NCBI GenBank assembly: GCA_023664605.1
Contig: JAMPFF010000020.1
Span: 1 to 46,091, forward strand
DNA length: 46,091 nucleotides
Source: Clostridium sp.
Lineage (GTDB): Bacteria > Bacillota > Clostridia > Lachnospirales > Lachnospiraceae
Reading direction: 5' to 3'
Program-made: the position numbers and the translations under genes
Shown here: positions 2,496 to 19,128 of the stretch, in pieces
How the letters are laid out: every line of letters starts with the position of its first letter
Position numbering within the stretch: position 1 is the first letter of the stretch
Notes under the pieces: model-generated
Seen by the model: only the letters and a program-made list of their open reading frames with translations
What the model was told of the DNA's origin: nothing
Database searches by the model: none

Positions 2496-2510
2496 GAAAG
2501 TTGGTATATA

Positions 2511-2544
2511 AGGCGGTATATCACTATTTTATAATATACCGCCT
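2511..2544. repeat. strong 11-bp hairpin after the 92-residue gene
   Basis: AGGCGGTATAT (2511-2521) and ATATACCGCCT (2534-2544) are perfect complements with a 12-base AT-rich loop. No long T-run follows, so it may be a weak terminator, an mRNA stabiliser or an operator. The core resembles the hairpin at 2138-2174. Confidence 0.55.
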
Positions 2545-2587
2545 ATATGGAGAAACCTATTCTAATAACGGATTGGAGGAATGATTT

Positions 2588-4192
2588 ATTACGAGCGAAA
2601 AAATAACAGAAAACAGAATTTGTAACAGTTTAAGAACTTATTTATATCGAATGGCTGATGATAAAAGTCAAAATACATATGAACCATTAAATCTAAAATG
2701 GGTACTTCCAATAGAAAGTACAGATGGAATGATAACAGCATTTAAAAATGTGATTTATCTTTTAGGCTATGTACAAAAAACAGGATGTAATGAAGATACT
2801 ATAGATAAGATTATTGAAAATGATATACGTCCTATAACGAATGGAATAAGAGATGAATATGATTTTTTTATGGCAGTCACAATTATAGCTATATGTAGCA
2901 TGGAGAATGATTTTTCTGACACAAAAAAATTAATGATATTATTCCATGAGATAATAGGAAAGTTTATCGATATGCTGGAAGAAGTATGGAAATTGATTGA
3001 TTCAAAGGAGAATCCTCTTGTCAATGACAAAGAAGAAATACAAGGACTTGACATAAGTAGACTTGAATCCGGAATGGTAGTAAAGAATTACAAAGAAATG
3101 TGTGAAATTTTAAATGAAGAAATTGGTGATGGTAATTCTAAAAAAGCACAATTAAAGGAATGGTCGAGATATTTCGTATGGGAGAAAAAAGGACAAAAAT
3201 TTATCATATTGGATATATATGATGAACCACTTCCAAAAGATGATGGCAGGCAGAATAAAAATTTATATGTTCAATATATTGAAGTAATTCTTATGAAGAT
3301 ACTTTCAAAGCAAAAAAATACTAAGGAGCCGTTTTATATAACCACAAATCAGATGTGGAAATTATTAGGAATGATAAATAACAACTATAAAAACATATCG
3401 TTGGACGATTTGAATAATATGATTACAGATTATGAAGTTACATCATTTGATATGAAAAAGTTCTATCAAAGATGCAATCAAAGACTGCGAGAGATTTTAT
3501 TTTCTTCATTAAATAAGTTGGAAGACAGAGCATTGATTAAATATGAGATAGAGACGGTTATTGTTTATTTAGATGAAGACAGTAAAACGATATATAAACC
3601 AGCAAATGATTTTCAAAAGAAAAATATATTGAAGGCAGAAAGAAAAGCACTTTTAGATATGGGACTTGAAAGCAAACAACACGCATATGCAAAGTTTAAG
3701 GAAACAGAATTTTTTGAAAGAGTAAATGCTTATTTGCATGAATGGTACGGATGGGAGTATACATTTAACCGTATCAAAATTAATTATAATAAGTCGGATG
3801 TATTAGAAACTGTCCATAGGGATGAATTGAAATTGCGGAATGATTTTGAAGAAATGAAGTCAAATAGATTGGAATTAAATGACAGAGTTGTAGAAGCATT
3901 ATATAAAAATGCACAAGTTATGGCAGAAAACAGACATAAAAAAGCAAATCAGGAATATCAGGAAGCCTTAGAAAAATATAAAAGTGAATGTATGATGATT
4001 GGCAGTATTCCAGATTCGTTTTTGCCTACTAAAGAAGATTTACATATATTTGATTACTTACCATACTTTGTAGAACTTCAGAATAGGCTTACAGATGAAT
4101 TGATTTGTATACGGAAACCACAAGAACGAAGAATGATAATAGAGTTTAATGATGCAGAATCAAAGGAACTTGATGAGTTGTTTAAAATTTGA
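2588..4192 (+). CDS. unrecognised 534-residue protein with an ATT start
   Basis: The frame closes at TGA 2582. The next candidate start near the strong GGAGG (2575-2579) is ATT at 2588, 8 bases downstream, followed by ACG AGC GAA. Starting at the first in-frame ATG (2651) would discard 21 sensible residues and leave the ribosome-binding site about 70 bases away. The product is hydrophilic, charged and mostly helical, with no signal peptide or membrane segment. The middle (about residues 290-340, including FYQRCNQRLREILFSSLNKLEDRALIKYE) could be a winged-helix DNA-binding region, and residues 430-480 look coiled-coil. It is followed by an intergenic region with paired hairpins and then by a primase gene, so a replication-initiator role is possible. 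That role is inference only. Confidence 0.65.
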   Translation: MTSEKITENRICNSLRTYLYRMADDKSQNTYEPLNLKWVLPIESTDGMITAFKNVIYLLGYVQKTGCNEDTIDKIIENDIRPITNGIRDEYDFFMAVTIIAICSMENDFSDTKKLMILFHEIIGKFIDMLEEVWKLIDSKENPLVNDKEEIQGLDISRLESGMVVKNYKEMCEILNEEIGDGNSKKAQLKEWSRYFVWEKKGQKFIILDIYDEPLPKDDGRQNKNLYVQYIEVILMKILSKQKNTKEPFYITTNQMWKLLGMINNNYKNISLDDLNNMITDYEVTSFDMKKFYQRCNQRLREILFSSLNKLEDRALIKYEIETVIVYLDEDSKTIYKPANDFQKKNILKAERKALLDMGLESKQHAYAKFKETEFFERVNAYLHEWYGWEYTFNRIKINYNKSDVLETVHRDELKLRNDFEEMKSNRLELNDRVVEALYKNAQVMAENRHKKANQEYQEALEKYKSECMMIGSIPDSFLPTKEDLHIFDYLPYFVELQNRLTDELICIRKPQERRMIIEFNDAESKELDELFKI

Positions 4193-4199
4193 CTATATT

Positions 4200-4439
4200 C
4201 ATCTACTATATATAAAAACCTTAAAGTAGATGTAAATGTTCAATTTTCGAGGACAATAAAGATTTGGATGATTTATTTGCTAATTTAGGAACAGATTAAA
4301 AAAGGAACCATTTAGACACTCCAATATATATACATACCCTATATTAAACTGTTTAAATGGTTCCTTTTTTAAAGAGAAGAAAAAATGGACAATTCCATCT
4401 ACTATATATAAAAGACTCTATAGTAGATATAAATGTCCA
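4200..4439. repeat. two direct copies of a hairpin repeat around a longer inverted repeat
   Basis: Unit A (4200-4247) and unit B (4386-4446) share CATCTACTATATATAAAA, then AGTAGAT, TAAATGT and CAATTTT. Each forms a hairpin. In B the stem ATCTACTATA / TATAGTAGAT is perfect over 10 bp and is enclosed by TGGACA (4386-4391) and TGTCCA (4434-4439). In A the stem is CATCTACT / AGTAGATG. They flank the inverted repeat at 4298-4370. Candidate roles are initiator or partition binding sites, or operators. Confidence 0.6.
4298..4370. terminator. 17-bp inverted repeat with A/T tails, possible bidirectional terminator
   Basis: The arms 4298-4314 and 4354-4370 are perfectly complementary over 17 bp, starting with six A and ending with six T around GGAACCATTTA. 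The 39-base loop is longer than usual for an intrinsic terminator. The symmetric A and T runs fit a bidirectional terminator or a duplex binding site. Confidence 0.45.
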
Positions 4440-4474
4440 ATTTTTGAAAAAGCAAGTAAATAAAGGGATTATAA

Positions 4475-4714
4475 GCCTACGGCGTTGCCCATCCAACGGC
4501 TTGCGCCGTTGTCTGCCGAGAAATTAAAAAAAGACTTTATGTTTATATTGATGTTCGCAGGATTTTGAGAATTTATTTAAGCCACTAATAATTTGAGCCT
4601 CTTTATCATAAAAAAATTTGATTAAAAAATTCCACATTGCAATCATATATCATTTTTTTATTTCGCGGCAAGGTATGGCGCGCAGCGACATACCGTAGGG
4701 CAACCGTGCGTAGC
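4475..4714. other. non-coding region with GC-rich hairpins before the primase gene; candidate origin
   Basis: No gene is visible from 4193 to 4748. Within this AT-rich stretch are two GC-rich islands. At 4494-4511 CAACGGC/GCCGTTG forms a 7-bp hairpin with a TTGC loop. At 4672-4694 GGTATG/CATACC forms another. The outer segments GCCTACGGCGTTGCCC (4475-4490) and GGGCAACCGTGCGTAGC (4698-4714) are imperfect inverted copies of each other, which gives the 240-bp segment terminal symmetry. Its position between a possible initiator gene and a primase gene suits an origin. A small decayed mobile element is the alternative. No clear DnaA-box cluster was seen. Confidence 0.35.
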
Positions 4715-4748
4715 ACAATATTAATACTGAAGGAGAATATATACATAA

Positions 4749-5717
4749 ATGGGATTTGAATATAAAGAAGAATTAAAAGAGTTATTACCTGATTATATGG
4801 AACTACTGGAAGAACAGGGAAAGACGGAGAATAGGGGCAATGATTACTGGACGTGTCCATTTTGTGATTCTGGAAATAAACAAAACAATTCTGCTGCTTT
4901 TCATGTAATAGACACAAAATATCAATGTTTTTCATGTGACGCACATGGAGATATTTTCGATTTGGTAGCACATATGGAGAAACTACCCAAAAGGGATTTT
5001 ATCAAACATTATAACCGCACATTAAAAATCATGCGTCCTTATTTGGATGGTGGGAAACCTAAAAAGAGCAGGGAAGAATATATTCCTGAGTTTTTGAAGC
5101 AAATAGAAGACTATACAGACTATTTATATAAATGTCATGAGAATGTAGGGCAGACAGATTATTTTGTGAAGCGTGGATTGAGTAAAGAAACGATTGACAG
5201 GTTCAATTTGGGATATGATGCAGAAAAGAATGCTGTAACTATTCCATATAACCCTAACTGTAAAGGATATGTAGATAGGATTTTGTATGATAGCAGTAGC
5301 AAATATTATAAGCATGGTAATGAGATTTTTAATATAAATGCGCTTTATGAATCGGATATAAATTCGTGGCTTTCTGGTTGCAGTGATTATGTATACGTCT
5401 GCGAAGGTCAAATTGATTCAATGTCTTTTGCAGAGATTGGATTAGATGCTATCGGACTTGGCGGGGTGAATGAAGTATCTAAATTAGTACAGATATTAAG
5501 AGAAAAGCCGACTGATAAAATACTTGTTTTAGCTTTGGATAATGATAAAGCTGGCAGACATGCAACAGGGAAATTTATTGAAGAACTTGCGGAGGTTGAA
5601 TTAAATCAAAGATATATTGTTAATAGTGATATTTACGAGAAATATAAAGATGCCAATGAATTTCTGGTTGCTGATAAAAAAGGATTTGCAGAAAGAATGA
5701 AAACTATAACAGTTTGA
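4749..5717 (+). CDS. DnaG-like primase with CHC2 zinc finger and TOPRIM domain
   Basis: This is a 322-residue protein. The N-terminal zinc ribbon (about residues 37-65) shows CPFC and CFSC pairs in the CHC2 arrangement. A linker region resembling the primase N-terminal catalytic lobe follows. Then comes a TOPRIM fold with the conserved glutamate in YVCEGQIDSMS and the acidic DNDKAGR motif. Such enzymes make RNA primers for the lagging strand. It is much shorter than host DnaG (about 600 residues) and lacks a DnaB-binding C-terminal domain, as phage and plasmid primases often do. An AAGGAG (4730-4735) lies a rather long 13 bases before ATG 4749. The TAA just before the ATG rules out an earlier in-frame start. 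Confidence 0.85.
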   Translation: MGFEYKEELKELLPDYMELLEEQGKTENRGNDYWTCPFCDSGNKQNNSAAFHVIDTKYQCFSCDAHGDIFDLVAHMEKLPKRDFIKHYNRTLKIMRPYLDGGKPKKSREEYIPEFLKQIEDYTDYLYKCHENVGQTDYFVKRGLSKETIDRFNLGYDAEKNAVTIPYNPNCKGYVDRILYDSSSKYYKHGNEIFNINALYESDINSWLSGCSDYVYVCEGQIDSMSFAEIGLDAIGLGGVNEVSKLVQILREKPTDKILVLALDNDKAGRHATGKFIEELAEVELNQRYIVNSDIYEKYKDANEFLVADKKGFAERMKTITV

Positions 5718-5788
5718 TGGGTATGTATGATTTTAAGGTTATATATTTATTGATTAAAGGATAAGAAAGATATAGGAGGATTCCATCA

Positions 5789-6028
5789 ATTAATAATACA
5801 AGAATTAAGTATTTATCAGTAGCAGATTCAAAAATTTATAAAGTTACAGATATTGATTTTTATAATCTGACAATAAAAGCAATGGGAACAAACTTATCTA
5901 TTGCAGATGTTCCGGAAAATGAAGTTTTTCCGGCTGAATCATTTAGTGAATTTAAGATTCAGTTATGTAATGGCGGTATGGGAAAGATTATTGATTTTGG
6001 GGAGTGGGTAAAAGGGCATAAGTTATGA
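5789..6028 (+). CDS. 79-residue hypothetical protein with an ATT start
   Basis: A strong AGGAGG (5774-5779) is followed 9 bases later by ATT 5789 and a fully open 79-codon frame ending TGA 6026-6028. No ATG, GTG or TTG lies near the ribosome-binding site in this frame. The first in-frame ATG is codon 32. The peptide begins (I/M)NNTRIKYLSVADSKIY and continues with a beta-rich pattern (ITKV-type strands, FPAESFSEFKIQL, GGMGKIIDFGEW). It is soluble with no recognised domain. The stop overlaps ATG 6025 of a 30-codon open frame that includes CVYC. Confidence 0.6.
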   Translation: MNNTRIKYLSVADSKIYKVTDIDFYNLTIKAMGTNLSIADVPENEVFPAESFSEFKIQLCNGGMGKIIDFGEWVKGHKL

Positions 6029-6104
6029 GTATAGAAATTTGTGTTTATTGTGTAAAGATAAGGGTAGCCAATGAAATGTGTCTTTCAAGAAGTATTACAA
6101 ATAG

Positions 6105-6422
6105 TTATATGTATTAAAAGATTTTTCAAAGGCTGAAAGAATTGATTATGCAAGACGATTAGAAAGAATTGAGAGTTTAAAAGCAAAGAAAAGAATGTCC
6201 GATGGTGGCAAAGGGTGTCTAATATCGGACAACCTTAGAACTGATGAAGTAGTCGCTCATAAATTAGGCATTGGTGGAAAAGACACCTATCGCAAAGAGA
6301 AATATATCGTAGATAACAAAAATTCACTCTCACCAGAAGATTTTGCAGATTGGGATAATAGTAATTTTGTGAAAGAGCGATTCAATACTAAAGAATATGT
6401 AAATAAACATTGTTATTGTTGA
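6105..6422 (+). pseudogene. remnant of a ParB-like or replication-regulatory protein
   Basis: The open frame after TAG 6102-6104 encodes KDFSKAERIDYARRLERIE, then SDGGKG, NLRTDEVVAHKLGIGGKD and ADWD. This pattern is typical of the helix-turn-helix and C-terminal part of ParB-like proteins of phages and plasmids. The N-terminal ParB nuclease/CTPase motifs are absent. Upstream, a short frame (6025-6117) and another stop interrupt any longer gene. ATG 6195 exists but would begin mid-domain. It is read as a decayed or deleted gene, although a short domain protein from 6195 cannot be excluded. Confidence 0.5.
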
Positions 6423-6451
6423 TAAATTTTAATTGTGGAGGTAGTTTTTTA

Positions 6452-8143
6452 TTGAGTAATACGAAAAAAATGCGTGATGAATCAGCTAACAAGGCTGAGT
6501 TAGAGGAACTATATCAAATTTATACAAGATTCCGGTTAGGTGATAAATCGGCTTTGAATGAATTATTTGTAACAGTAAACAGTGAAGATAGTAAGATAAT
6601 TATAAGTAGGAAAAATGAAAGAAAACGTATGGAGAACTTGGATAATGTTTTAGATGCAGAGATGATAATGGCTGAAGAAAAGGATAAGGAAGAAAGAAGG
6701 GAAAAAGATAACTGGTTAAATTCTAACAATGAGAAAGTGATTTTCCGGTTTACATGCCTAAATAAGATGGTATATAACAAAAAAGTAGACTATTTATCAG
6801 AAGCAAAAAGTACAGGGTATGAGAATGGGGAAAAGGTAGCAAATAGAAATGCTAAGTATTATACAGGAAAATATGATGTATCTGATTTAAACAGTTTTAT
6901 ATACGAGACAGTGCTTGAAATTTTTAAAAGTGAAACAGATGAAAACGATTGTTTGACACTAGATGATAAAAAGAGTAAGACCCCAATATGTGACGGTGTA
7001 TCATTGTTGCAGAACATAAAATTTTTTACAAGCATGAGAATAAATAAACGAGCAGAAAATAGCTATTTAGACATATATGAAGGAGATTATTTGTGCGACA
7101 GTGATGATGAATCTAATGATGGTGTAAAACTTTCACTTTTTGACCAATATAATCTGAGGGAATTTATGAGATTAGAAGGCGATACATCGCGTCTGCCAAT
7201 ATATGAAGATTATTTGGAATGGCTAAAGAGAAATAATGTATATAGACTTTTTAAAGTAAACGCATATGATATTCAGGCAATTATTGAAACAATCATGAAT
7301 TGCCCAGATACTTTTGTTAAAGATTTAGAGGGAAACAGAGATGTAGATATTGCCATGCGGTTTATAAAACAAGAAGAATTACAGGAAATGATTAAGTCCA
7401 GGCACGATCTCGATATTGAACAGGAAAATATATCAAAAGATTTAAGGCTAATAGAACAAAAATTATTGAATCATTTGTTATATTCACTGAATTACAGGAT
7501 TGGTGAAGCAGAGAAAAGTAAAGGCATTTTTAAAAAGGAATCGGATAGATTTTTATATGCGTTAGACATAAAGAGATATATAAAAATATTTAGCCGGACA
7601 AGCTATGAAATATATAATATGAGCATTAGATATATAGAGACTCAGGATTATAATGGCTACTTTGATATAGTGAAAAAGTATGAAGATACAGTTATTGATA
7701 TTGTTTCTTTAAAAAAAGGAAAAAAGAAATATGATATGGTCAATTTGATATCTGAAAAGGATAATGATTTAGTAGATGATAAGACGGAAGCATTGCTCGA
7801 TATAGCAAAAACATTAATTGAATATTATCAAAATCAGGAGAAAGAATATAGACAAAATGGATTAAGCGAATATAAACAAAGTAAACATATTAACTGGAAT
7901 ACTGGTTTTTGGGAGACTGAATTAGAAGATGAAGTTTTAAAGATTAAATTATTATCAAATAAAGATGTGAAAAAACCGGCTCAACACAGCATAAATAAAG
8001 AAAAATTAATAGTTTATTGTGGATATATGAATTTTTACTTTTGTAATGTAGAAGAGAAAATATGTTATAGTATGCCTAAAGACAGGCGTATTATTAGCAG
8101 AAGAAATAAGAATCACGAAATTTCTATATACAATGCAGACTGA
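6452..8143 (+). CDS. unrecognised 563-residue protein
   Basis: TTG 6452 is chosen as start because GGAGG at 6437-6441 is 10 bases upstream. The earlier frame from 6410 has no ribosome-binding site. The product is hydrophilic, rich in Lys, Glu and Asn, predicted mostly helical, and lacks a signal peptide or membrane span. The N-terminal YTRFRLGDKSALNELF, and later DLNSFIYETVLEIF, recall the helical layout of sigma-factor-like proteins, but promoter-binding motifs are not evident and no family is assigned. The structured non-coding region begins about 110 bases after it. Confidence 0.65.
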   Translation: MSNTKKMRDESANKAELEELYQIYTRFRLGDKSALNELFVTVNSEDSKIIISRKNERKRMENLDNVLDAEMIMAEEKDKEERREKDNWLNSNNEKVIFRFTCLNKMVYNKKVDYLSEAKSTGYENGEKVANRNAKYYTGKYDVSDLNSFIYETVLEIFKSETDENDCLTLDDKKSKTPICDGVSLLQNIKFFTSMRINKRAENSYLDIYEGDYLCDSDDESNDGVKLSLFDQYNLREFMRLEGDTSRLPIYEDYLEWLKRNNVYRLFKVNAYDIQAIIETIMNCPDTFVKDLEGNRDVDIAMRFIKQEELQEMIKSRHDLDIEQENISKDLRLIEQKLLNHLLYSLNYRIGEAEKSKGIFKKESDRFLYALDIKRYIKIFSRTSYEIYNMSIRYIETQDYNGYFDIVKKYEDTVIDIVSLKKGKKKYDMVNLISEKDNDLVDDKTEALLDIAKTLIEYYQNQEKEYRQNGLSEYKQSKHINWNTGFWETELEDEVLKIKLLSNKDVKKPAQHSINKEKLIVYCGYMNFYFCNVEEKICYSMPKDRRIISRRNKNHEISIYNAD

Positions 8144-8252
8144 AAGGTGCATTTACTTATATAATTTAGTATATATAAATAGAAAGGTAAAAAAGTAAGA
8201 TATTTTACTACAGTTTCCATAAATTAAATTTCCTATAGGCTAATAGGGTGTC

Positions 8253-8540
8253 ATAGCTTTATTAGCTATTATGTATATCGACTCCACAACGATATACAGA
8301 ACAATAACACAACAAAAAACGATGTAAGCGTCAGACGGCTTTTTGGAAGAAAGTTGTTTGATGCAGTCCATATACATCTCCACAATGTATATGGAAATCT
8401 GGTAAAGGTCTACCACACTTTACCAGAGATACAAGCTGCATGATGCGTTATTCGCACAAGCATCATGTAGCAATGTATTATAGGTCATTCAGTCTTAGAC
8501 TACTACAGCTTGTGACTGGATGTTGTTATTTTTTTGCCTT
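8253..8540 (+). ncRNA. candidate structured RNA with a chain of hairpins
   Basis: The gene-free interval 8144-8596 contains at least four consecutive perfect hairpins. They are 8273-8280/8290-8297 (8 bp, loop ACTCCACAA), 8367-8377/8385-8395 (11 bp, loop CTCCACA), 8398-8407/8418-8427 (10 bp, loop GTCTACCACA) and 8439-8446/8460-8467 (8 bp). An outer 8-bp helix (8431-8438 ACAAGCTG with 8506-8513 CAGCTTGT) encloses the last of these and a small AGTC/GACT stem. A further stem lies at 8253-8258/8264-8269. Three loops share CCACA. A seven-T run at 8530-8536 may mark the end. No open frame fits. Large ornate RNAs (for example ROOL, GOLLD) occur in related phages, but no class could be assigned by eye. 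A hairpin-rich replication site is the alternative. Strand is assumed from the T-run and flanking genes. Confidence 0.6.
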
Positions 8541-8596
8541 TTTAATGCACATTTTTATCAAGACATATATAATAAAATGAAGAAAGGGAAAAACGA

Positions 8597-8782
8597 ATGG
8601 ATTTAAAAGAAAGAGTAAAAATGTTTATGAATGATACGGGTGCAAAACTGAGTGTATTCTGTAGAAAAGTTCAAATAAGCAGTACATATTACTACGCATG
8701 GATGCGCGGAGAAATAGAGCCGTCAGAAAGTATGAGTGACCGCATTAGGGTATACCTTGATGAAGTATATAAGAAATCATAA
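8597..8782 (+). CDS. small helix-turn-helix protein
   Basis: This is a 61-residue protein, MDLKERVKMFMNDTG and onward. The pattern KLSVFCRKVQISSTYYYAWMRGE resembles a Cro/C1-type helix-turn-helix in which the second helix (ISSTYYYAWMRG) would contact DNA. The fold is close to minimal, with no oligomerisation domain. A GAAAGGG ribosome-binding site lies just before ATG 8597. It is placed between the structured RNA region and the tail-related genes and could regulate either. Its target is unknown. Confidence 0.7.
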   Translation: MDLKERVKMFMNDTGAKLSVFCRKVQISSTYYYAWMRGEIEPSESMSDRIRVYLDEVYKKS

Positions 8783-8931
8783 ATCAAACTAGCAGTAAAA
8801 TTGAGCAACTATTAACCAAGCAAATATAAAATTCCATTTAATCTTAAATCATCCAAACCAGCACACAATCATGCTGTGACAATCAAATTAATAAAAATTG
8901 AATAGAGAACTAAGAAATACGGAGGAAATTC

Positions 8932-9366: not shown

Positions 9367-9370
9367 TATT

Positions 9371-9838: not shown

Positions 9839-9880
9839 GGGTGTTTGCTACACCTTTTTTGATGGAGGAAAATATATTTA

Positions 9881-12800
9881 ATGGCAACAAAAATAACAAT
9901 TACCCCAGAACTGGATGAAGAGAAATTAAGACAGCAGTTAGATAAAGTAAAAAACCAAAAAGAAAAAATCAAAGTAGATATAGATACCGGAAACATTGAC
10001 AGTGCTAATCAGAACATGAAAAAGCTGAATAATACGGTATCAAATAGCAATACGATATTTGGCAGACTAAAAAATACCATAGGTAATACTTTTTCAACCG
10101 GAAAACTAGCTATGACCGGATATCTTGCGGTACTAAATGAAATCAATAAGGCGGGCAAAAACGCAAAACAGACAATAAATGAATTGGATAAGGCGGCTAC
10201 AGATTTAGCAGTAGCCACTAATATGTCAAGAGAATCAGTATCAGAATTAGTAAAAAATTATAATGATTATGCAAAAGAATTGAAAAGCACGACTACGCAA
10301 ATAACGTCTGCTGCCGATGATTATTTAAGAGCCGGTAAGTCAATGAGCGAAACACAGGCACTAATCAAAGATTCTATCATGCTATCAAAGTTAGGACAGT
10401 TGGAGGCAGGCACAGCAACCGAGGATTTATTGGCGGTCATGAATGGTTATGAAATGTCCATTGAAGAAGTGAGAAAGTCTTTAGATGCAATGGTAGCGTT
10501 GGATATGGCAGCAGCTACATCATCGGGAGATATTGCAACGGCATTAAAATATTGCGCTTCCAGTGCTGATGTAGCCGGAGTTTCATTTAATAAATTGGCG
10601 GCTATGGTTGCCGTCGTACAGGATAAAACTCAGCAGAGCGCAGAAACAATCGGTACATTTATGAATACCCTGTTATCCAGATATAGGGATGTTAAAATAG
10701 GGCAGTTTGTAAGTGGTGACGGCGAAGATATATCGCAGGTAGAAACAATACTAAATTCCCTTGATATTAAGTTAAGGGATAGCAGTCAGGAATTTAGGGA
10801 TTTTGAAACAGTAATAGAGGAAGTTGCTTTAAGCTGGGAGGATTATTCATCTGTACAGCAAGCGGCGATTGCAAAAGCCTTCAGCGGCACAAGACAACAA
10901 AACAGATTCCTTGCATTAATGGAAGGCTATAATAAAACACTGGAATTAACAGAGGTTGCGGCAAATTCCGCAGGAACGGCTATTGAGAAATTTGAAAACT
11001 CCTATATGAATTCATTAGAAGCCAAACAAAATGCCTTACAAGCCTCTTTTGAATCTATGATAATGAATTCTGATTTCAGTGAAATATATGCCGGAATACT
11101 TGAAACAACAACAGCATTGGTTGATTTTATGAATCAGACAAATGCACTGAAAGGTGTATTGACAGGGTTAACGGTTACAGGCGGTATCAAAGGATTTCTG
11201 GCAATAAAAACAGGTGTAAACGAAGCCTATATCGCTTTAAATAAATTTCAAAATGCACTGAATATAGTAAAGCAGACGAATATATCCACACAGGAATATG
11301 AGAGATTATTACTGTTATCAAACGGACTATCCACAAGCCAGATGAAACTTGTATTATCTACAAACAGTCTTTCTGTAGCACAGAAAAAAGAGTTATTAAT
11401 GGCAAGCGGTTTATCAGAGGAAGAAGCTATTTTGCAGTTGCAGACGTGGAAGATGACAGCCGCAAATACAGGATTGACAGCATCTACGGTAACACTAGGG
11501 AATGCGTTTAAAGCATTATGGAGTACGCTTATTGCAAATCCGCTGGTTATAGTAACTGCATTGATTTCCGGTGCGGTAATGGCATATCAATCCTATAATC
11601 AGAAATTAGAAGAAACCAGACAAGCTAATTTGGATGCCGCAACAACAGCGTCAGAAAGCGCAGATAAGCTGAAAGATTTATATAATGAATATAAACGCCT
11701 TGCATCTATACAGGATAGGACAACCTCTGAAGAAGAATCATTTAAAACAGCGGTTGAAAATATCACGGTTGCATTAGGCGATAAGGCAGAAATTATAAAA
11801 GACCTTACAGCCGGAACGGATGAATACGCAGATGCACTTGCAAGAGCGACAAAAGAAGAATTACAGTCTCAGGCAGTAACCGCTACTATTGGCAGAAAAT
11901 CAGCGGAAGAAACTCTGCAAGGTAATATTTGGAGTGATTGGAGCGGTTCAAAAGTATCCGTAGATTCCAACAGTAAAGGGAAATCTTTATCAGATGAAGC
12001 GCAAAAGGCAGTAGATATTGTTTCTGATTCTTTAAAAGAATTTGAGACAATCAACCGCACATGGAAAAGTATTTCATGGGATATTTCCAGTGATAATCCG
12101 ACAGAAGCATTGGAATTTTACAATTCACTTATAGAAGCAAGAGAAAAGTTAGTGTTAGCTTCAAAAGACGATGAAACACTGCTTGATACAGAAATCTATG
12201 AAGATTTGAATACCGCAGTCAATACAATGTCGGAAAGCCTTGATACTTACATTGAAAAGTTGTATGAAGAAGAAAAACTTAACTATATGGCACAAAACGG
12301 TATTCCTAGTGTAACAGAGGAGTACAAGGCTATGGAATCCGCTTTAGTCAGTGCGGCAGGTTCCAGTGTTGATTTGCAGGATAAATTCAAAGAACTGCTT
12401 ATGTCTGATTTTTCAGATTTGGCAACAGATATAGGCAATGTCGGAAATGCTGTAGAAAACGTATCGGCACAAGCAGGAAAGGCAATTCCATTATTTAACC
12501 AGCTTACCACTTCCGAGGAAGCATTAGACCAATTCCAGGCATCCATTAAATCAGCAACAGACGCATATGCAACACTTTTATCCGGTAATTATACGTCTAC
12601 TGAATTGTTGGACTGTATACAGGCAATCAATAAGGCTATGTCCAATATGGGCGGTACTCTTGATTGGGAATTTATCAATCGCCAGACAGATTCTTTGGAA
12701 TTATTAGGTAATGCGATACAGCACATTTCCCAAAAGTGCGCTGAAAGTATATTATCAGGTGCAGGAATCGACATAGACAGTGAGTTTGGACAGATGCTTG

Positions 12801-15800
12801 CAAACATTATAGGACAGATTTATGATACGGAAGCGGCGTTTGAGGGGATGAACTCACAGCTTGATAACTTGCAGTCTTCCTATCAGACATTGACGGGTAT
12901 ATTAGAGGCTTATAATGAAACAGGCTATATCAATTTAGACAATCTTCAATCTTTACTTACGGCAGATGAAAACTTTATTCAGATGTTACAGGTGGAGAAC
13001 GGACAGCTTACATTAAATCAAGCTGCTTATGAAAATCTGGTAGCGGTTCAGTTATTAGAATTTAAAGCGAAATTAAATGATGCCGCCGCTGCTGAAATTG
13101 AGGCACTTGCCAAACAGAAAGCGGAACAAGCAACGAACCAGAACGCGGACGCTTCCCAGAATGCAGTAGCTAAACTGGATGCGGAAACACAGGCATTTAA
13201 CAGGAATACATCGGCGGCTATTGCAAATGCGGTAGCAAAAGCAGAAGAAAACGGCGTATCAGAAGCGGAGATTCAAGGTGTATTTGATAAATATACAGAA
13301 GTTTGGAACTCTGCTATGAATAATTACAGTGTTGATTTTGACAGCTTTATGAGTGGCGGTAAGTCAGCGGCAAGTAAATCCGGCAGCGAACACGCAGACG
13401 CATATTTGAAAGCGTTTGAAGAAGAATACAGCCGCTTAAAAGATATGCTTGACCGTGGCGAGATTTCCGAAGCGCAATATCTGAATGCGTTACGAAGACT
13501 GTATACCCGATATTTCAAAGACCGTAAAGAATATCTGGACGAATATAGGAAATATGAGTCTGAATATTTATCAGGTATGCTTGCCCTGCATAATAAGGCA
13601 TTGAGCGGTATCAGTACATTATTGAACCGTAAGATAAGCGCGGCGAATGATGCCAAAGATGCCGCCATATCAGCATTACAGGAAGAAAAGGAAGCCGCAG
13701 CGGAGGCATATCAAAATCAGATTGATAATATCGAAAAAGAGAAAGATGCCATTGATGACCTTATCAAAGAGAAAAATAAGAAGATAGATTCCATCAATGA
13801 AGAGATAGAGGCAATCGAGAGGGCGGCGGAAAGCAGAAGAAAAAATATTCAGCTTGAAAAAGACCAATTCGCGTTAGAAAAGATGCTCAATCAGAGAACA
13901 TCATTGGTATATAAAGGCGGTCAGTTTGTATATGAAGCGGATACAAGTGGAGTCAGGGATGCGCGTGAAAAGGTAAGAGAAGACCAGGAAGCATTGCAGA
14001 TTGACAGTCTAAAGAATGAAATTTCACTTATCCAAAAAGAAATTGACCTTTTGGAAGAAAAGAAAGATGCCTTGTCAGAAGAACAAGACCGTATCCAGAA
14101 ATTAATGGATGAGTCCAATAAATATTATGACAATCTCATTAAGCAGCAAGAAAAAATGTGGGATTCCATGATAAAAGGCTTGGAGCAGCAGAAGTCCAAA
14201 TGGGAAGAATTAGCCGATATACAGGAAATCGCAGAAGCATTTTCCGCTATTGAACAGGTATTTGGCGAAATGGGATATACAGTCGAGGATATACTTAATG
14301 GCAATGAACAGGCTTTTGAAGATTTCAAGTCAAAATACATATCCCTTCTGAGTGACATGAATAATAATTCCAGTTTTGCAGATGGATTAACTTATGCAAC
14401 AGGAATTGCCAAAGAAAATCTTGGTTCTTTCCTTGATAAGACACAAGAAGCAGGTGCAGGCATTGACGAACTATCCACAAAAGCTGGTGAATTAGGCACT
14501 ATAACAGAGGGTATGGACGGATTAGCGGCATCCGCTTCCGAAGCCAATACAAATATTTCCGAAACGGCAACAAATGTAGGAGAGGTTGCGGCTAATGTAG
14601 GTAACTTAGAAACCAACCTACACAACGTAAATGCGCTTGTATCAGAAGAACAGACCGCATTTGATAACCTCAAACAGACAATAGATGAAGTTCTTGAAGC
14701 AATCGACCAGAAAACCGAAGCTATCCAGAACGAACAAAACGCCGTAGGAATTGCGACAAGTAGCGAAATGGCAGATTTCTTATTGCTGAAAGATAAGATT
14801 CTGGAAGTAAAAGAAACACTTGATACTGTAAATGATACCGTTGCAACTATGGATAGACAACCGATAGATAACCTTACAACGGCTTTTCAGATGTTGTATA
14901 ACCAGTTGCTTCTTGTGTCAAATATATTATCAGTCAACGCAGAAAACAGCATTGCCTCCTCTATACAGGCACTAAATGAGATTTCCTTAGAAGATGGCAT
15001 TATTGCACAATTTACCAACCTGAAAGAAGCCATTGATTCCGTTACTGCTGCAATCAGCGGTGGAGGCGGTGATTCCGAAGGTGGTGAAGGTCAGGGAGGT
15101 AATTCTGCTTCTGGACAGGGCGGCTCATCTGGCGGTAAAGGTTCTGAATCAGGCGGTGGTGGCAGTTCACTTACAGGCGCAATTACTGAAATGGGTAGTA
15201 CAGCACAGGAAGTGATTGGTGAACCCGATGCAGAGGGTGACGGCACTGTTATAGGTGAGTTTGGCTCTATGGAAACTGCTGTAACTGATGTAACTGCTGC
15301 TATTGGCGGCGGTGAATCTGGCAGTGGAGAGGGTTCTGGTAGTGGTGAATCCGGTGGCGAAGATGAGAATAATCTTATCGGCTCTATCGTTAATCTTGGC
15401 GAAACCACGGAAGAAGTATTAGGTGAACCAGGCGGCGACGGTGTTATCGGCAGGTTTGAGCAGTTCAAAGTACCAATCCAAGAAGCGGATACTCATGTGC
15501 ATAGTATATCTGATGGACTTGATGCGATTGACGGCAAGGAAGTTGAATGTACCATTACTGTCAATATCAAGACCAATGGCAGTATACCTGCATTTGCGTC
15601 TGGCACTGCTTTAAGCGGAATGAACCTCAATAGTGCGGAATACAATGCCAAATATACAGGAAATGCTCATGTAGAGGGTACGGCTTTAGCATCTGGCAAT
15701 TGGGCAGTACAATCTAATGAACAGAATGCTTTGGTTGGGGAGGAAGGTTTTGAAATCATCGTAAGGAATGGCAAATTCTTTACCGTTGGAGAGAATGGCG

Positions 15801-16285
15801 CGGAAATGACAAACATTAAGCGCAACGATATTGTCTTCAATCATGAACAGTCGGTTCAGCTTCTTAAATATGGTCGTATTTCTGGACGTGGTAAGGCATA
15901 TGCTGATGGCACTGTTGGTAACGGTAAATTCCTTACACCAAGCGGTAAAATCTTTCAAGAGTACAATCCCGACAAAGATGATTCCTCATTCGGAAAACTC
16001 TATAAGGCATGGCACGCTCATTACGACAATCTTGAAAAAGACGTGCATGAAATCAACGAAGAACTCTCCCACCATTTGCTGATGGAAAGAAACGAACAGA
16101 TGCAAAGGGATATCGCGCAGATTAGTAATGCCAGCAGTATTGTCAATAATACTAGGAATGTGCAGCCTGTAGTAACTCAGCAATTCAATATCACAATGCC
16201 TAATATTACAGATAGTACGTCTGCTGCAACATTGATGAATGACCTTCAATCTTTAGCTACTAAGAAGTTCCAAGTTAATTGGTAA
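9881..16285 (+). CDS. TP901-family phage tail tape-measure protein
   Basis: This very large (2134-residue) protein determines tail length and aids DNA delivery in siphophages. The TP901 core is at about residues 95-270: LDKAATDLAVATNMSRESV, KSMSETQALIKDSIMLSKLG, GTATEDLLAVMNGYEMS and AGVSFNKLAAMVAVVQDKT. A hydrophobic membrane segment lies near residue 555 (NPLVIVTALISGAVMAY). Long coiled coils occupy about 1250-1450 and contain repeated EKEKDAIDDLIKEKNKKID-type heptads. A glycine/serine-rich zone at about 1725-1850 holds two related modules, each centred on EVIGEP/EVLGEP. The C-terminus carries ASGTALSGMN and GEEGFEIIVRNG-like segments. GGAGG lies 12 bases before ATG 9881. Confidence 0.92.
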   Translation: MATKITITPELDEEKLRQQLDKVKNQKEKIKVDIDTGNIDSANQNMKKLNNTVSNSNTIFGRLKNTIGNTFSTGKLAMTGYLAVLNEINKAGKNAKQTINELDKAATDLAVATNMSRESVSELVKNYNDYAKELKSTTTQITSAADDYLRAGKSMSETQALIKDSIMLSKLGQLEAGTATEDLLAVMNGYEMSIEEVRKSLDAMVALDMAAATSSGDIATALKYCASSADVAGVSFNKLAAMVAVVQDKTQQSAETIGTFMNTLLSRYRDVKIGQFVSGDGEDISQVETILNSLDIKLRDSSQEFRDFETVIEEVALSWEDYSSVQQAAIAKAFSGTRQQNRFLALMEGYNKTLELTEVAANSAGTAIEKFENSYMNSLEAKQNALQASFESMIMNSDFSEIYAGILETTTALVDFMNQTNALKGVLTGLTVTGGIKGFLAIKTGVNEAYIALNKFQNALNIVKQTNISTQEYERLLLLSNGLSTSQMKLVLSTNSLSVAQKKELLMASGLSEEEAILQLQTWKMTAANTGLTASTVTLGNAFKALWSTLIANPLVIVTALISGAVMAYQSYNQKLEETRQANLDAATTASESADKLKDLYNEYKRLASIQDRTTSEEESFKTAVENITVALGDKAEIIKDLTAGTDEYADALARATKEELQSQAVTATIGRKSAEETLQGNIWSDWSGSKVSVDSNSKGKSLSDEAQKAVDIVSDSLKEFETINRTWKSISWDISSDNPTEALEFYNSLIEAREKLVLASKDDETLLDTEIYEDLNTAVNTMSESLDTYIEKLYEEEKLNYMAQNGIPSVTEEYKAMESALVSAAGSSVDLQDKFKELLMSDFSDLATDIGNVGNAVENVSAQAGKAIPLFNQLTTSEEALDQFQASIKSATDAYATLLSGNYTSTELLDCIQAINKAMSNMGGTLDWEFINRQTDSLELLGNAIQHISQKCAESILSGAGIDIDSEFGQMLANIIGQIYDTEAAFEGMNSQLDNLQSSYQTLTGILEAYNETGYINLDNLQSLLTADENFIQMLQVENGQLTLNQAAYENLVAVQLLEFKAKLNDAAAAEIEALAKQKAEQATNQNADASQNAVAKLDAETQAFNRNTSAAIANAVAKAEENGVSEAEIQGVFDKYTEVWNSAMNNYSVDFDSFMSGGKSAASKSGSEHADAYLKAFEEEYSRLKDMLDRGEISEAQYLNALRRLYTRYFKDRKEYLDEYRKYESEYLSGMLALHNKALSGISTLLNRKISAANDAKDAAISALQEEKEAAAEAYQNQIDNIEKEKDAIDDLIKEKNKKIDSINEEIEAIERAAESRRKNIQLEKDQFALEKMLNQRTSLVYKGGQFVYEADTSGVRDAREKVREDQEALQIDSLKNEISLIQKEIDLLEEKKDALSEEQDRIQKLMDESNKYYDNLIKQQEKMWDSMIKGLEQQKSKWEELADIQEIAEAFSAIEQVFGEMGYTVEDILNGNEQAFEDFKSKYISLLSDMNNNSSFADGLTYATGIAKENLGSFLDKTQEAGAGIDELSTKAGELGTITEGMDGLAASASEANTNISETATNVGEVAANVGNLETNLHNVNALVSEEQTAFDNLKQTIDEVLEAIDQKTEAIQNEQNAVGIATSSEMADFLLLKDKILEVKETLDTVNDTVATMDRQPIDNLTTAFQMLYNQLLLVSNILSVNAENSIASSIQALNEISLEDGIIAQFTNLKEAIDSVTAAISGGGGDSEGGEGQGGNSASGQGGSSGGKGSESGGGGSSLTGAITEMGSTAQEVIGEPDAEGDGTVIGEFGSMETAVTDVTAAIGGGESGSGEGSGSGESGGEDENNLIGSIVNLGETTEEVLGEPGGDGVIGRFEQFKVPIQEADTHVHSISDGLDAIDGKEVECTITVNIKTNGSIPAFASGTALSGMNLNSAEYNAKYTGNAHVEGTALASGNWAVQSNEQNALVGEEGFEIIVRNGKFFTVGENGAEMTNIKRNDIVFNHEQSVQLLKYGRISGRGKAYADGTVGNGKFLTPSGKIFQEYNPDKDDSSFGKLYKAWHAHYDNLEKDVHEINEELSHHLLMERNEQMQRDIAQISNASSIVNNTRNVQPVVTQQFNITMPNITDSTSAATLMNDLQSLATKKFQVNW

Positions 16286-16296
16286 AATGTAAAATG

Positions 16297-16322
16297 ACCG
16301 CACTCTGAAATATGGGTGCGGT
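16297..16322. terminator. hairpin after the tape-measure gene
   Basis: ACCGCAC (16297-16303) pairs with GTGCGGT (16316-16322) around a 12-base loop, 12 bases after the tape-measure stop. Only a short AT tail follows, so termination may be weak. Confidence 0.5.
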
Positions 16323-16410
16323 TATAGTAGAAACATATGTTCTGATAGTGTTTTGTCAATTGTTGGTATATAATGAATTATTATAATACTAATGATTGGA
16401 GAAAACGATT

Positions 16411-16596
16411 ATGTGGAAAGATAAACAGCTCCAGATAGATGATGATAATAATTTGAATGAAAGTGTCTATCATAATTATGAGGAAATAATTGGTGGAAGA
16501 ACTGCTAATTTTTCAGTTGAGCCGTCTAATGAAAAAGATTATGATATTTATCTTATGACAGGAAATAACAGCGAGAAAGGTAGTGAGAAAAAATAG
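16411..16596 (+). CDS. small acidic hypothetical protein
   Basis: This is a 61-residue protein starting MWKDKQLQIDDDNNLNES. ATG 16411 lies 9 bases after GGAG (16398-16401). TTG 16396 has no ribosome-binding site. The product is highly acidic with no hydrophobic segment. Its TAG stop overlaps the ATA proposed as start of the next gene, so the pair is probably co-translated. Function is unknown. Confidence 0.6.
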   Translation: MWKDKQLQIDDDNNLNESVYHNYEEIIGGRTANFSVEPSNEKDYDIYLMTGNNSEKGSEKK

Positions 16597-17186
16597 AAGA
16601 ATTTCAAAAAATAATAGCAAATTTACCCTTAATATTACAATATATTATACCAGGATATATTTCTATTGTAATGTTTGAATTTGCTTTGTCTAAGAAAATA
16701 GATACAAAGAATAGCTTAATAGCAAGTTGTGTGACGAGTTATGCCTTGCTTTCTGTAGTATCATTAATAAGAATCAAGTGGTTAGGGTGGATACCTGATA
16801 CAGCAATTGTCAATTCTGGTCTATCCATTATAACTGGACTTCTGCTTGTGTGTATAGTTGCAATTTTGTCTCAAAGAAGATGGTTTAGAAAAATCACGGT
16901 TAAATTATTTCATAAGACATTGAATAGTGATATTTGGAGAGATGTGCTTGATTTAGAAAAAGGATCTAATCTGAAAGTTTATTTGAAAGATAAAGATTAC
17001 TATGTTATAGGACACCATAAAAACCATGAGGAAAAAGGAAGCGAGTCATGGATTGCGTTAAGTGCGTTTGCAAAGTTTGATAAAGAAACTAATCAAAATT
17101 ATAAAAGTGAGCCAAGTTATTTAGATAGAAAAGATGTAATTATAACATTAAGATTTGCAGATATTGAACATATAGAGATATTTTAA
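16593..17186 (+). CDS. small membrane protein with a probable ATA start
   Basis: The frame opens after TGA and reads ATA GAA GAA TTT CAA, giving (M)EEFQKIIANLPLILQYIIP. This looks like the natural N-terminus of an amphipathic-then-membrane protein. ATA 16593 overlaps the preceding TAG stop as ATAG, mimicking the usual ATGA coupling. The first ATG (16671) lies inside the first hydrophobic segment and has no ribosome-binding site. The 197-residue product has about three membrane segments (residues 8-30, 40-57, 65-85) and a soluble charged C-terminal domain ending IEHIEIF. Two-gene membrane/accessory pairs of this shape are common beside phage integrases. The function is not recognised. Confidence 0.6.
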   Translation: MEEFQKIIANLPLILQYIIPGYISIVMFEFALSKKIDTKNSLIASCVTSYALLSVVSLIRIKWLGWIPDTAIVNSGLSIITGLLLVCIVAILSQRRWFRKITVKLFHKTLNSDIWRDVLDLEKGSNLKVYLKDKDYYVIGHHKNHEEKGSESWIALSAFAKFDKETNQNYKSEPSYLDRKDVIITLRFADIEHIEIF

Positions 17187-17194
17187 CAATTTTC

Positions 17195-17231
17195 AGAGGG
17201 CAAGAGAAACATTAATCTCCTGCTCTTTTAT
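17195..17231 (+). terminator. imperfect terminator hairpin
   Basis: AGAGGGCAAGAGA and TCTCCTGCTCT form an interrupted stem followed by TTTTATT, 9 bases after the membrane-protein stop. The internal mismatches make it moderate at best. Confidence 0.45.
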
Positions 17232-17278
17232 TATGTCTAAAAATCAACTATTAACTAATATATAGGAGCAACAACAAA

Positions 17279-17569
17279 ATGAGCAGCATAGCAGACGAAA
17301 TCATAAAAACAATCAAATATGCGATTGATAAGAAGACGATTAATTGTGACCGCACCTACAAAACAGTCATAAAAAGAATAGAAAAAAATGGTTATGTCAT
17401 TACAGACGAAACAGGACAGGAAAGAACAGTTCCATGTGGCATACCTAATGTTGAATTAAGACCAATGCAGAGTGTTTATGTAAAAGTACCGATGGGGCGG
17501 TTGAATGAATTGTATATCTGTAATGTGGTAGGAAATACAAGCAATACAGGCAATTCCAGAAGAAGATAA
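17279..17569 (+). CDS. small phage-associated hypothetical protein
   Basis: This is a 96-residue protein starting MSSIADEIIKTIKYAIDKK. The N-terminal helix is followed by a beta-rich region (GYVITDETGQERTVPC, YVKVPMGRLNELYI) that resembles a small OB/SH3-like barrel. The tail GNTSNTGNSRRR is low-complexity and basic. TAGGAG lies about 10 bases before ATG 17279. Barrels of this sort occur in phage late regions, but the family is not identified. Transcription probably ends at the hairpin at 17702-17733. Confidence 0.6.
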   Translation: MSSIADEIIKTIKYAIDKKTINCDRTYKTVIKRIEKNGYVITDETGQERTVPCGIPNVELRPMQSVYVKVPMGRLNELYICNVVGNTSNTGNSRRR

Positions 17570-17701
17570 TTTTAAGTTTCAATGCAAATAATGTAACTAT
17601 CAACGAAGTCAATGTGAGTATAATTTGCTTAAAATAGTAAGTCATATTCCTTATAATATGTGGATTAGATAATGAAAAATTGAATATTGATATGATTTTA
17701 G

Positions 17702-17733
17702 GGTACTGCCATGATTTATAGCAGTACCTTTTT
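17702..17733 (+). terminator. intrinsic terminator before the integrase gene
   Basis: GGTACTGC (17702-17709) and GCAGTACC (17721-17728) form a perfect 8-bp stem followed by a T-run. It lies 33 bases before the proposed integrase start, with no clear promoter between them. Integrase expression may therefore depend on read-through. Confidence 0.75.
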
Positions 17734-17765
17734 AGATAAATTTTATATGAATTGGAGTGTGATTC

Positions 17766-18986
17766 ATTATAGAAGAAAATGTAAAAGCAAATAATGTAAA
17801 TGATTTGTTGAAATATATAGCCGAACACGATATGATTGATTTAGCATATGTGCAAGAGCAGATTGAAATGAAGAAAAGAGATGAATTATTGCATAAGCAT
17901 CCCTACAAAATTTATCAAGGAAAGGATGGTAAATGGTACACATATCTACCGGATGATGAAAAAGGAAGAATATTTAAAAAGAGAAACACAAAAGAAAGCA
18001 TAGAAAGTCTGGTTATCGCATACTGGAAAGAGAAAGAAACAAATCCTACTATAAATGATATATTTAGAGAATGGATTGCGGACAAGATAAGCAGACAGGA
18101 AATTTCAAAGTCAACTAAGGGCAGGTATGAAAGGCAATATGAACAATGTTTTGCAGAGTTTGGAAAACGTAATATTAAATCTATATCGGAATATGATATA
18201 GAAGATTTCTTACTTAGTTCTATCAGCAGTTATAGTCTGACAAGAAAAGGATTTAGTAATTTAAGGACGCTCATCTTTGGCATATTCCGTTTGGCAAAGA
18301 AAAAACATTACATAACATATAGCATTACTGAAATTGTAAATGATATTGAAATATCCAGAAAGTCTTTTAGAAAAATTATCAAAGAGGATGATGAACAGGT
18401 ATTTATGCTTGATGAAATCCCTAAGATTACAGGATATTTAGAACAAAATCAGGATATGTTAAATCTGGGGATATTACTTCTATTTAAAACCGGACTCCGT
18501 ATAGGCGAATTGGCGGCATTAAAGAATTGTGATATTCACGGTAATGTGATTCATGTCAATCGAACAGAAATATGTTATGAAGAAGAAAACGGTAATAGAG
18601 TTTATGAGGTAAGGGATTTCCCTAAAACGGAAGCAGGGATTCGAGATGTTGTTATCCCTAGTAACTGCCAGTGGATATTAAAAAGAATTAAACTGTTAAA
18701 TCCATTCGGTGAGTTCCTTTTTATGAGGAATGGAGAGCGTATCCGTACTTATGTATTTAGGAACAGATTGAGTACAGTATGTAGACATGCAGATGTAAAG
18801 AGAAAATCGCCTCATAAGATAAGAAAGACATATGGAAGTATATTGTTAGATGATGGATTGGCAGAATCATTGATTGTGAGTCAGATGGGGCATACCAATA
18901 TCAAAACTACAAAAGAACATTATTATAAAAACCGCAGAAATGTGGCTCAGATTATGAGCGAATTAGATAAGGTTACGGCACTATAG
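17766..18986 (+). CDS. int: tyrosine recombinase (integrase) with an ATT start
   Basis: This 406-residue site-specific recombinase has an N-terminal arm-binding region (YKIYQGKDGKWYTYLPDDE), a SAM-like core-binding domain (about residues 95-180) and a catalytic domain. Catalytic residues are visible as the first Arg in TGLRIGELAALK, HKIRKTYGS (HxxR), MGHTN, and the nucleophile Tyr in KEHYYKNRR. It would insert the element at the adjacent tRNA-Glu. GGAG (17754-17757) is 8 bases before ATT 17766. The codon two positions upstream is TGA (17760-17762), so no ATG/GTG start is available there. The alternative in-frame start TTG 17805 has no ribosome-binding site. Confidence 0.9.
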   Translation: MIEENVKANNVNDLLKYIAEHDMIDLAYVQEQIEMKKRDELLHKHPYKIYQGKDGKWYTYLPDDEKGRIFKKRNTKESIESLVIAYWKEKETNPTINDIFREWIADKISRQEISKSTKGRYERQYEQCFAEFGKRNIKSISEYDIEDFLLSSISSYSLTRKGFSNLRTLIFGIFRLAKKKHYITYSITEIVNDIEISRKSFRKIIKEDDEQVFMLDEIPKITGYLEQNQDMLNLGILLLFKTGLRIGELAALKNCDIHGNVIHVNRTEICYEEENGNRVYEVRDFPKTEAGIRDVVIPSNCQWILKRIKLLNPFGEFLFMRNGERIRTYVFRNRLSTVCRHADVKRKSPHKIRKTYGSILLDDGLAESLIVSQMGHTNIKTTKEHYYKNRRNVAQIMSELDKVTAL

Positions 18987-19016: not shown

Positions 19017-19128
19017 TCATAAACCAAACAAAGCACAACACCAATTCCAACAAAATAAAAATGCCAAAAAACCTTAATTTTTCAGCATCTTTTCGGGTTG
19101 GGCTGTTCGTTTAAAAATAAACAGTCAG

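What the first reader, a model, noticed from the sequence alone, without database searches (positions are those of the whole stretch)
2588..17768. Several element genes appear to start at ATT
Four genes have a good ribosome-binding site 6-9 bases before ATT and no usable ATG/GTG/TTG nearby: 2588 (534 residues), 5789 (79 residues), 8932 (144 residues) and 17766 (integrase). In-frame stops at 2582 and 17760 rule out upstream starts in two of them. The local contexts are alike (TTTATTACG, TTCATTACG, CAATTAAT, TTCATTATA). AUU is a rare start best known from infC, where IF3 rejects it and so autoregulates. Use across an element could tie its expression to initiation-factor levels. Core genes in the same window use ATG, GTG or TTG.
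Basis: partly seen in the sequence, partly recalled or inferred. Interest (0 to 1): 0.85.

Follow-up and report, generated by a model that had tools for sequence, protein, structure and literature searches.

The report
Mobile element genes starting at ATT/ATA
A family of mobile DNA elements in Lachnospiraceae bacteria appears to start its integrase and several other genes at the rare codons ATT or ATA, the same codon class their hosts use for initiation factor IF3, which suggests that these genes are kept weakly translated and tied to the host's initiation machinery.

Summary
All four ATT starts (2588, 5789, 8932, 17766) are present with GGAG(G) 6-9 bases upstream and no nearby ATG/GTG/TTG with a ribosome-binding site. 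A fifth gene (16593) probably starts at ATA. Relatives support the starts. At 2588, ten comparable starts are ATT in 7, TTG in 2, unclear in 1, ATG in 0, and two relatives lack the downstream ATG that would be the alternative. The stretch before that ATG evolves as coding sequence. The integrase start is read as ATT or ATA in 9 of 9 recognised family members (one by hand judgement), against 4 of 39 other labelled relatives; under the least favourable labelling it is 8 of 10 against 7 of 41, p=0.0003. The trait is scattered over the integrase tree. Primase and TubZ of the same elements keep ATG. Host infC is read as ATT in 11 of 12 copies and ATA in one. The IF3 link is well motivated but inferred: no expression data exist. 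Best reading: deliberately weak, IF3-sensitive translation. The start type is known (infC, pcnB, IS911, ccpN); its element-wide use is the new part.

The parts
2575..2579 (+). Shine-Dalgarno GGAGG of gene 2588
   Evidence: GGAGG or GGAG in the ten sequences compared
2588..4192 (+). ATT-start gene, 534 aa, conserved protein of unknown function (PHROG 36702)
   Evidence: ATT in 7 of 10 comparable starts, ATG in 0; coding signal in codons 2-21
5789..6028 (+). ATT-start gene, 79 aa, unknown function
   Evidence: ATT also in L067 (G718), TTG in L062, L066 and L070
8932..9366 (+). ATT-start gene, 144 aa, unknown function; least certain of the four
   Evidence: homology from residue 2 in L100, but that relative has no ATT at the position and the L035 relative has ATG
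16593..17186 (+). probable ATA-start gene, 197 aa, likely membrane protein (by eye); ATA overlaps the TAG of the ORF ending at 16596
   Evidence: ATA also in L031 (G344); SD weak in both
17702..17733 (+). intrinsic-terminator-like hairpin and T-run ahead of the integrase leader
   Evidence: such a hairpin about 32-38 nt before the start in 7 of 9 member integrases and 3 of 14 others
17754..17757 (+). Shine-Dalgarno GGAG of the integrase
17766..18986 (+). ATT-start tyrosine integrase, 406 aa
   Evidence: PF00589 2.8e-16; ATT or ATA in 9 of 9 recognised family members
634..1686 (+). TubZ-like GTPase, ATG start with GGAGG (frame open from 604): in-element control
4749..5717 (+). DnaG-like primase, ATG start: in-element control
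   Evidence: ATG in 8 of 8
6452..8143 (+). TTG-start gene, 563 aa, unknown; in a similar place some relatives carry a YonO-like RNA polymerase
9881..16285 (+). tape-measure-like protein, 2134 aa, ATG here but ATA in L066 (G717)
19128..19200 (-). tRNA-Glu (CTC), presumed insertion site; its 3' end faces the integrase
   Evidence: 7 of 8 other members have a tRNA gene beside the integrase

Best explanation
These are true initiation codons. A family of integrative elements with some phage-like genes keeps ATT or ATA starts (sometimes TTG), mostly behind good Shine-Dalgarno sequences, on a set of genes: integrase, the conserved 2588 protein, the 5789 protein, a YonO-like RNA polymerase and a few others. 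Initiator tRNA pairs imperfectly with AUU/AUA and IF3 destabilises such complexes, so the genes are translated at a low rate that rises when IF3 is scarce relative to ribosomes. Low, host-coupled doses of integrase and other genes would keep the integrated element quiet. Shown here: the codons, their conservation, ATH starts in integrases from separate branches that sit in these elements, ATG kept in primase and TubZ, and ATT/ATA at the infC start of the hosts. Inferred: low yield (from published S. aureus work), IF3 sensitivity in these hosts, and the benefit to the element.
For: 2588: ATT 7, TTG 2, unclear 1, ATG 0 of 10; L063 and L066 have ATA where the window has the alternative ATG 2651. 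Codons 2-21 in 8 of those sequences: 100 of 197 single-base codon differences synonymous in frame, against 58 of 235 and 9 of 194 in the other frames. Integrases: 9 of 9 members ATH against 4 of 39 others, p=4e-7; least favourable labelling 8 of 10 against 7 of 41, p=0.0003. ATH needs 10 changes on the tree, 8 forced by starred branches. Control integrases: none of 19 depends on an ATH start and 17 have an NTG with SD. Primase ATG 8 of 8, TubZ ATG 7 of 7. infC ATT in 11 of 12 copies, ATA in one. YonO-like: ATA, ATA, ATT. A after ATT in 14 of 14. Reported: AUU/AUA about 10% of AUG in S. aureus (PMC13009471 passages); IF3 repression of a non-NTG start (PMC5472188 passages).
Against: No translation, peptide or expression data. 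TTG, canonical though weak, replaces ATT in 2 of 10 (2588) and 3 of 5 (5789). The 8932 relatives lack ATT: L035 has ATG, L100 has an ATG overlapping its SD. L069 has no clear start. L064, L069 and L071 have upstream in-frame NTG codons without a usable SD, as do several integrases and YonO-like genes. The G344 integrase was labelled ATA by hand; the automatic rule would have taken an ATG 32 codons upstream with a four-base SD match. G179, with an ATG integrase, has one short tape-measure match 16 kb away and may be a member. The ATH label is not significantly clustered on the tree (68 of 500 shuffles as low). Of 6 tree-independent pairs, on average 3.7 go the predicted way, 2.3 do not differ and none goes against; p=0.125. 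10 of 12 infC copies also have an ATG four codons downstream, without SD. Many members are draft or metagenome-assembled; L063's record is titled as another phylum.
Confidence: 0.6

Rival explanations
1. The ATT/ATA starts are real but serve only to hold expression low; IF3 sensitivity is an unused side effect, and any weak start would do.
For: ATT/ATA exchange with TTG at the same position. SPbeta yonO starts at TTG and that of phage Perkons at GTG. A terminator-like hairpin precedes 7 of 9 member integrases (3 of 14 others), which would also lower expression.
Against: TTG or GTG would be the easier way to be weak, and are common in related integrases, yet the recognised members use ATT/ATA on separate branches of the tree.
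Confidence: 0.3
2. Initiation is at downstream ATG/TTG codons and the upstream similarity is incidental.
For: An ATG at the position of window 2651 is present in 8 of 10 sequences.
Against: It is ATA in L063 and L066; there is no SD before it in the window; the stretch before it evolves as coding DNA. Integrase alternatives TTG 17805 and 17808 have no SD, and 17805 is TTA in L031.
Confidence: 0.04
3. Neutral drift: AT-rich elements tolerate G-to-A/T changes in start codons because the SD is strong.
For: Most 1-kb blocks of the element are 29-39% G+C, against 41-49% in most of the neighbouring chromosome; ATT, ATA and TTG interchange.
Against: Primase is ATG in 8 of 8 and TubZ ATG in 7 of 7; ATG is absent from the 10 starts of 2588.
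Confidence: 0.1
4. Translation enters these frames by coupling or frameshifting from an overlapping out-of-frame ATG (as at 2581).
For: An out-of-frame ATG lies between the SD and the ATT at 2581.
Against: That ATG is absent in L064 and L071 and lies one base from the SD.
Confidence: 0.02

Closest known systems
infC (IF3) AUU start and autoregulation
   Same: AUU/AUA start behind an SD; infC of the same hosts is read as using it; IF3 represses such codons (PMC5472188 passages)
   Different: A single chromosomal gene that regulates itself, against several unrelated genes of a mobile element
IS911 AUU initiation (Polard et al. 1991; only its title seen, in the reference list of PMC3219604)
   Same: AUU initiation in a mobile DNA element
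   Different: Insertion sequence with frameshifting; here a tyrosine integrase plus other genes, and also AUA
S. aureus cvfC1 (AUU), ccpN and citZ (AUA) (PMC13009471, passages)
   Same: Non-NTG starts in Bacillota with strong SD; measured at about 10% of AUG in poor medium, ccpN up to 30% in rich medium
   Different: Chromosomal single genes; not a shared trait of one element
sigR GTC start in Streptomyces (PMC5472188, passages)
   Same: Regulatory gene held down by IF3 through a non-canonical start
   Different: GTC codon, single gene
AUU start predicted in phage TP-J34 orf28 (PMC3952083, passages)
   Same: AUU start in a temperate phage
   Different: One ORF of 60, predicted only
SPbeta-type phages with YonO RNA polymerase
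   Same: YonO-like polymerase in related elements; SPbeta yonO has a weak TTG start
   Different: Much larger phages; the three phage genes read start at TTG, GTG and ATG

Membership tests
IF3-controlled non-NTG start genes | Initiation at a codon outside ATG/GTG/TTG | tested here: met
   by sequence and conservation only, not by experiment
IF3-controlled non-NTG start genes | SD at proper spacing | tested here: met
   weak for 16593
IF3-controlled non-NTG start genes | Non-NTG codon conserved at the same position | tested here: met
   2588: ATT in 7 of 10; integrase: ATT or ATA in 9 of 9 recognised members; 5789: ATT in 2 of 5; not met for 8932 in the two relatives found
IF3-controlled non-NTG start genes | Translation changes with IF3 level or IF3 mutants | not testable with these tools
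   needs experiment
tyrosine-integrase tRNA-targeting integrative element | Phage_integrase domain beside the 3' end of a tRNA gene | tested here: met
   7 of 8 other members have a tRNA within about 250 bases of the integrase
tyrosine-integrase tRNA-targeting integrative element | Direct-repeat att sites at both ends | tested here: inconclusive
   no exact repeat over 12 bases with the tRNA region; the window is the whole contig, so the left end may be missing
complete temperate phage | Capsid, portal and terminase genes | tested here: inconclusive
   only a tape-measure-like protein was recognised among the window proteins scanned; not all ORFs were scanned

The most novel reading that the evidence does not exclude
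The element runs an IF3-sensing regulon: by giving integrase, an RNA polymerase module and other genes AUU/AUA starts, it reads the host's IF3-to-ribosome balance (growth state, ribosome stress) through the same codon class as infC and adjusts excision and gene expression to it. Integrases acquired from different sources for new tRNA sites are repeatedly converted to this start class.
Probability: 0.3. Interest if true: 0.82.

Novelty: new variant of a known kind. Interest (0 to 1): 0.62.

Why it matters
Gene callers that allow only ATG/GTG/TTG will annotate these integrases and other genes too short (PMC5472188, passages, makes this point for sigR and infC). If ATT/ATA starts are a shared, repeatedly acquired property of one element family, they offer a natural test of whether mobile DNA exploits initiation-factor control, which the papers seen here describe for isolated genes.

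Tried and rejected
Single-sequence scans for the 2588, 8932 and integrase proteins in viral contigs and for 2588 in genome contigs found no relatives; the profile A1 did. The 8932 protein gave no match in 7 genomes. The bare SD-ATH pattern count is not above host background, and a loose frame scan gave ATH in 18 of 377 host frames, many of which look internal or have a canonical codon near; both were set aside for position-aware counts. The structure model of 2588 was poor (mean pLDDT 61; a helix at residues 10-21, ahead of Met22, is among its better parts) and Foldseek found nothing at E<=0.001. No att repeat was found. Downstream-start, frameshift and drift readings were rejected or downgraded for the reasons in the rivals; sequencing error is unlikely because different assemblies share the codons.

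Rows dropped and labelling. 2588: only sequences whose N-terminus aligns were scored (10); L070, L072-L076, L035 and weaker matches were not. Integrase tree: dropped as short, partial or poorly placed were L119, L131, L137, L152, L174, L175, L176 and L180 (automatic labels TTG, unresolved, ATA, GTG, unresolved, ATG, ATG, GTG). 15 kept rows have no label, among them L143, L144 and L178, whose automatic labels CTG, ATT and ATT I judged ambiguous. Counting these three as ATH non-members gives 9 of 9 against 7 of 42, p=4e-6. Eight rows, including G344 and G716, were labelled by hand. Membership meant sharing a contig with the 2588 gene, tape-measure or 6452-type genes. Only G179 gave a match, a lone short one. 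Flanks of G308 and G156 are short (9.4 and 6.3 kb), so membership there is unsure. Controls cover 7 of the 13 other integrase matches of the own genome.
Full report
Setting. The window is one whole contig (C12, 46,091 bases) of a 3.6-Mb draft genome. It shares its family code with genomes whose contigs match, by length and position, records titled Roseburia hominis and Acetatifactor, so I take it for a Lachnospiraceae member. Bases up to about 19.0 kb are an AT-rich element ending in a tyrosine integrase that faces the 3' end of tRNA-Glu. It carries a winged-helix protein, a TubZ-like GTPase, a primase, a tape-measure-like protein and several unknowns. The chromosome resumes with rimP, nusA, infB (IF2) and rbfA.

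Observation. The four ATT starts exist as described. A fifth gene, 16593, has no NTG codon before its conserved N-terminus; an ATA overlaps the stop of the preceding ORF, and the G344 relative also offers only ATA there. The bare motif is common inside host genes: 4 in the element against 6.9 predicted from the host rate. Restricted to codons that precede every NTG of a gene frame, it is 3 of 15 element frames against 6 of 413 chromosomal frames, p=0.0026. In the 400-kb chromosomal sample the clean cases on reading are infC and one other gene.

Conservation at 2588. Relatives were found in 9 of 396 other family genomes and as 11 loci in genome contigs (four of these are contigs already seen, and one record, L063, is titled as a Gastranaerophilales MAG). 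Of ten sequences with a comparable start, ATT is used in seven (L067 and L068 identical in this stretch), TTG in two, and one (L069) seems to have lost the start region, leaving an ATA 9 bases after the SD. None has ATG. L063 and L066 have ATA in place of the window's ATG 2651. L064, L069 and L071 have an upstream in-frame NTG without usable SD. In codons 2-21 of eight of these sequences, mismatches are most frequent at third positions, and 51 percent of single-base codon differences are synonymous in frame, against 25 and 5 percent in the other frames. Translation therefore begins upstream of 2651, most simply at the ATT.

Other genes. 5789 has ATT in G718 and TTG in three relatives. The tape-measure gene is ATG in the window, G353 and G718, TTG in G720, ATA in G717 and unclear in G715. 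YonO-like polymerases of three elements read as ATA (G717), ATA (G716) and ATT (G719); in G717 and G716 an upstream NTG without SD remains possible, and the one in G353 was not read. For 8932, homology to G718 starts at residue 2, but that relative has no ATT at the position and an ATG overlaps its SD; the L035 relative has ATG. 8932 thus rests on the SD and on the lack of an alternative before codon 39.

Integrase. In the window, G715 and G720 the start reads as ATT; in G719, G717, G344, G718, G184 and G367 as ATA. These nine lie with the 2588 gene, tape-measure or 6452-type genes. Several have upstream NTG codons without SD or overlapping it. In G344 an ATG 32 codons upstream has a four-base SD match, and I set it aside because that frame would run through the stretch corresponding to the terminator hairpin. 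Among 39 other labelled integrases four are ATH (ATA three, ATC one): 9 of 9 against 4 of 39, p=4e-7. Leaving out G344: 8 of 8, p=2e-6. With G344 canonical, G179 a member and the three ambiguous rows ATH: 8 of 10 against 7 of 41, p=0.0003. These tests ignore kinship. On the tree the ATH label changes ten times, eight forced by starred branches, and is not significantly clustered. With membership restricted to sharing a contig with 2588 (6 of 6 against 7 of 42, p=1.4e-4), of 6 tree-independent pairs on average 3.7 go the predicted way, 2.3 do not differ and none is opposed; p=0.125. A tRNA gene lies beside the integrase in 7 of 8 other members (Val, Thr, Leu, Leu, Met, Thr, Leu; none found in G720), as expected if integrase modules are exchanged. 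Of 19 control integrases, 17 have an NTG start with SD and none depends on ATH. A terminator-like hairpin with T-run lies 32-38 bases before the start in 7 of 9 members, and a comparable hairpin precedes 3 of 14 others.

Controls inside the element. Primase starts at ATG in 8 of 8 and TubZ at ATG in 7 of 7, so the element does not use ATH starts everywhere.

Host side. infC reads as ATT in 11 of 12 copies from 11 genomes and ATA in G255; 10 copies also have an ATG four codons on, without SD. The base after ATT is A in 14 of 14 listed element ATT starts against 63 of 139 canonical host starts; counted by five gene families this is p about 0.02. A pairing of that A with U33 of initiator tRNA is recalled, not tested; the nine listed ATA starts do not show it (3 of 9).

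Mechanism. AUU/AUA starts in S. aureus gave about 10 percent of AUG expression in poor medium (PMC13009471, passages), and IF3 represses non-NTG starts in E. coli and Streptomyces (PMC5472188, passages). I infer low, IF3-sensitive translation of a defined gene set. That the genes respond to IF3 in these hosts, and that the element benefits, is not shown.

Novelty. Searches for AUU/ATT/AUA or unusual starts with phage, bacteria, integrase, IS911, mobile element or prophage pointed, in the passages I read, to isolated genes: infC, pcnB (reference title), IS911 (reference title), sigR, cvfC1/ccpN/citZ, a GTC ORF in a Ralstonia phage and one predicted AUU in phage TP-J34. Other listed papers were seen as listings only, and the library holds open-licence papers only, so this is weak evidence of absence. 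I saw no report of an element family that uses such starts across several genes.

Noticed in passing
window 19614-25166: The element sits directly upstream of rimP-nusA-infB-rbfA; infB encodes IF2. Probably coincidence of the tRNA-Glu site, since other members lie beside other tRNAs.
   Followed up: partly
L066:13917-17135, L063:18222-21479, L068:18657-21053: Three related elements carry YonO/RdRP-like RNA polymerases, otherwise matched in SPbeta-type phages, with apparent ATA or ATT starts; the window element has a 563-aa protein without Pfam match (6452) in a similar place.
   Followed up: partly
L031:1761-2264: The G344 relative of gene 16593 has an in-frame TGA in the middle of the alignable region: pseudogene or recoding.
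   Followed up: no
window 2510-2545: An inverted repeat (GGCGGTATAT...ATATACCGCC) lies upstream of the 2588 leader: terminator or operator.
   Followed up: no
window 8160-8560: About 400 bases without a convincing gene; possible non-coding RNA or regulatory DNA.
   Followed up: no
window 6028-6450: ORF 6105-6422 matches proteins that extend further upstream in L035 and L078; it looks like a truncated remnant.
   Followed up: no
L114 (G255) and L069: The one host with ATA on infC (G255) is also the one whose 2588 orthologue may start at ATA; a single case.
   Followed up: no
G000:C11:152100: A chromosomal gene (frame 152082-152633) seems to start at ATT behind AGGAGGTG, a second candidate beside infC.
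   Followed up: no
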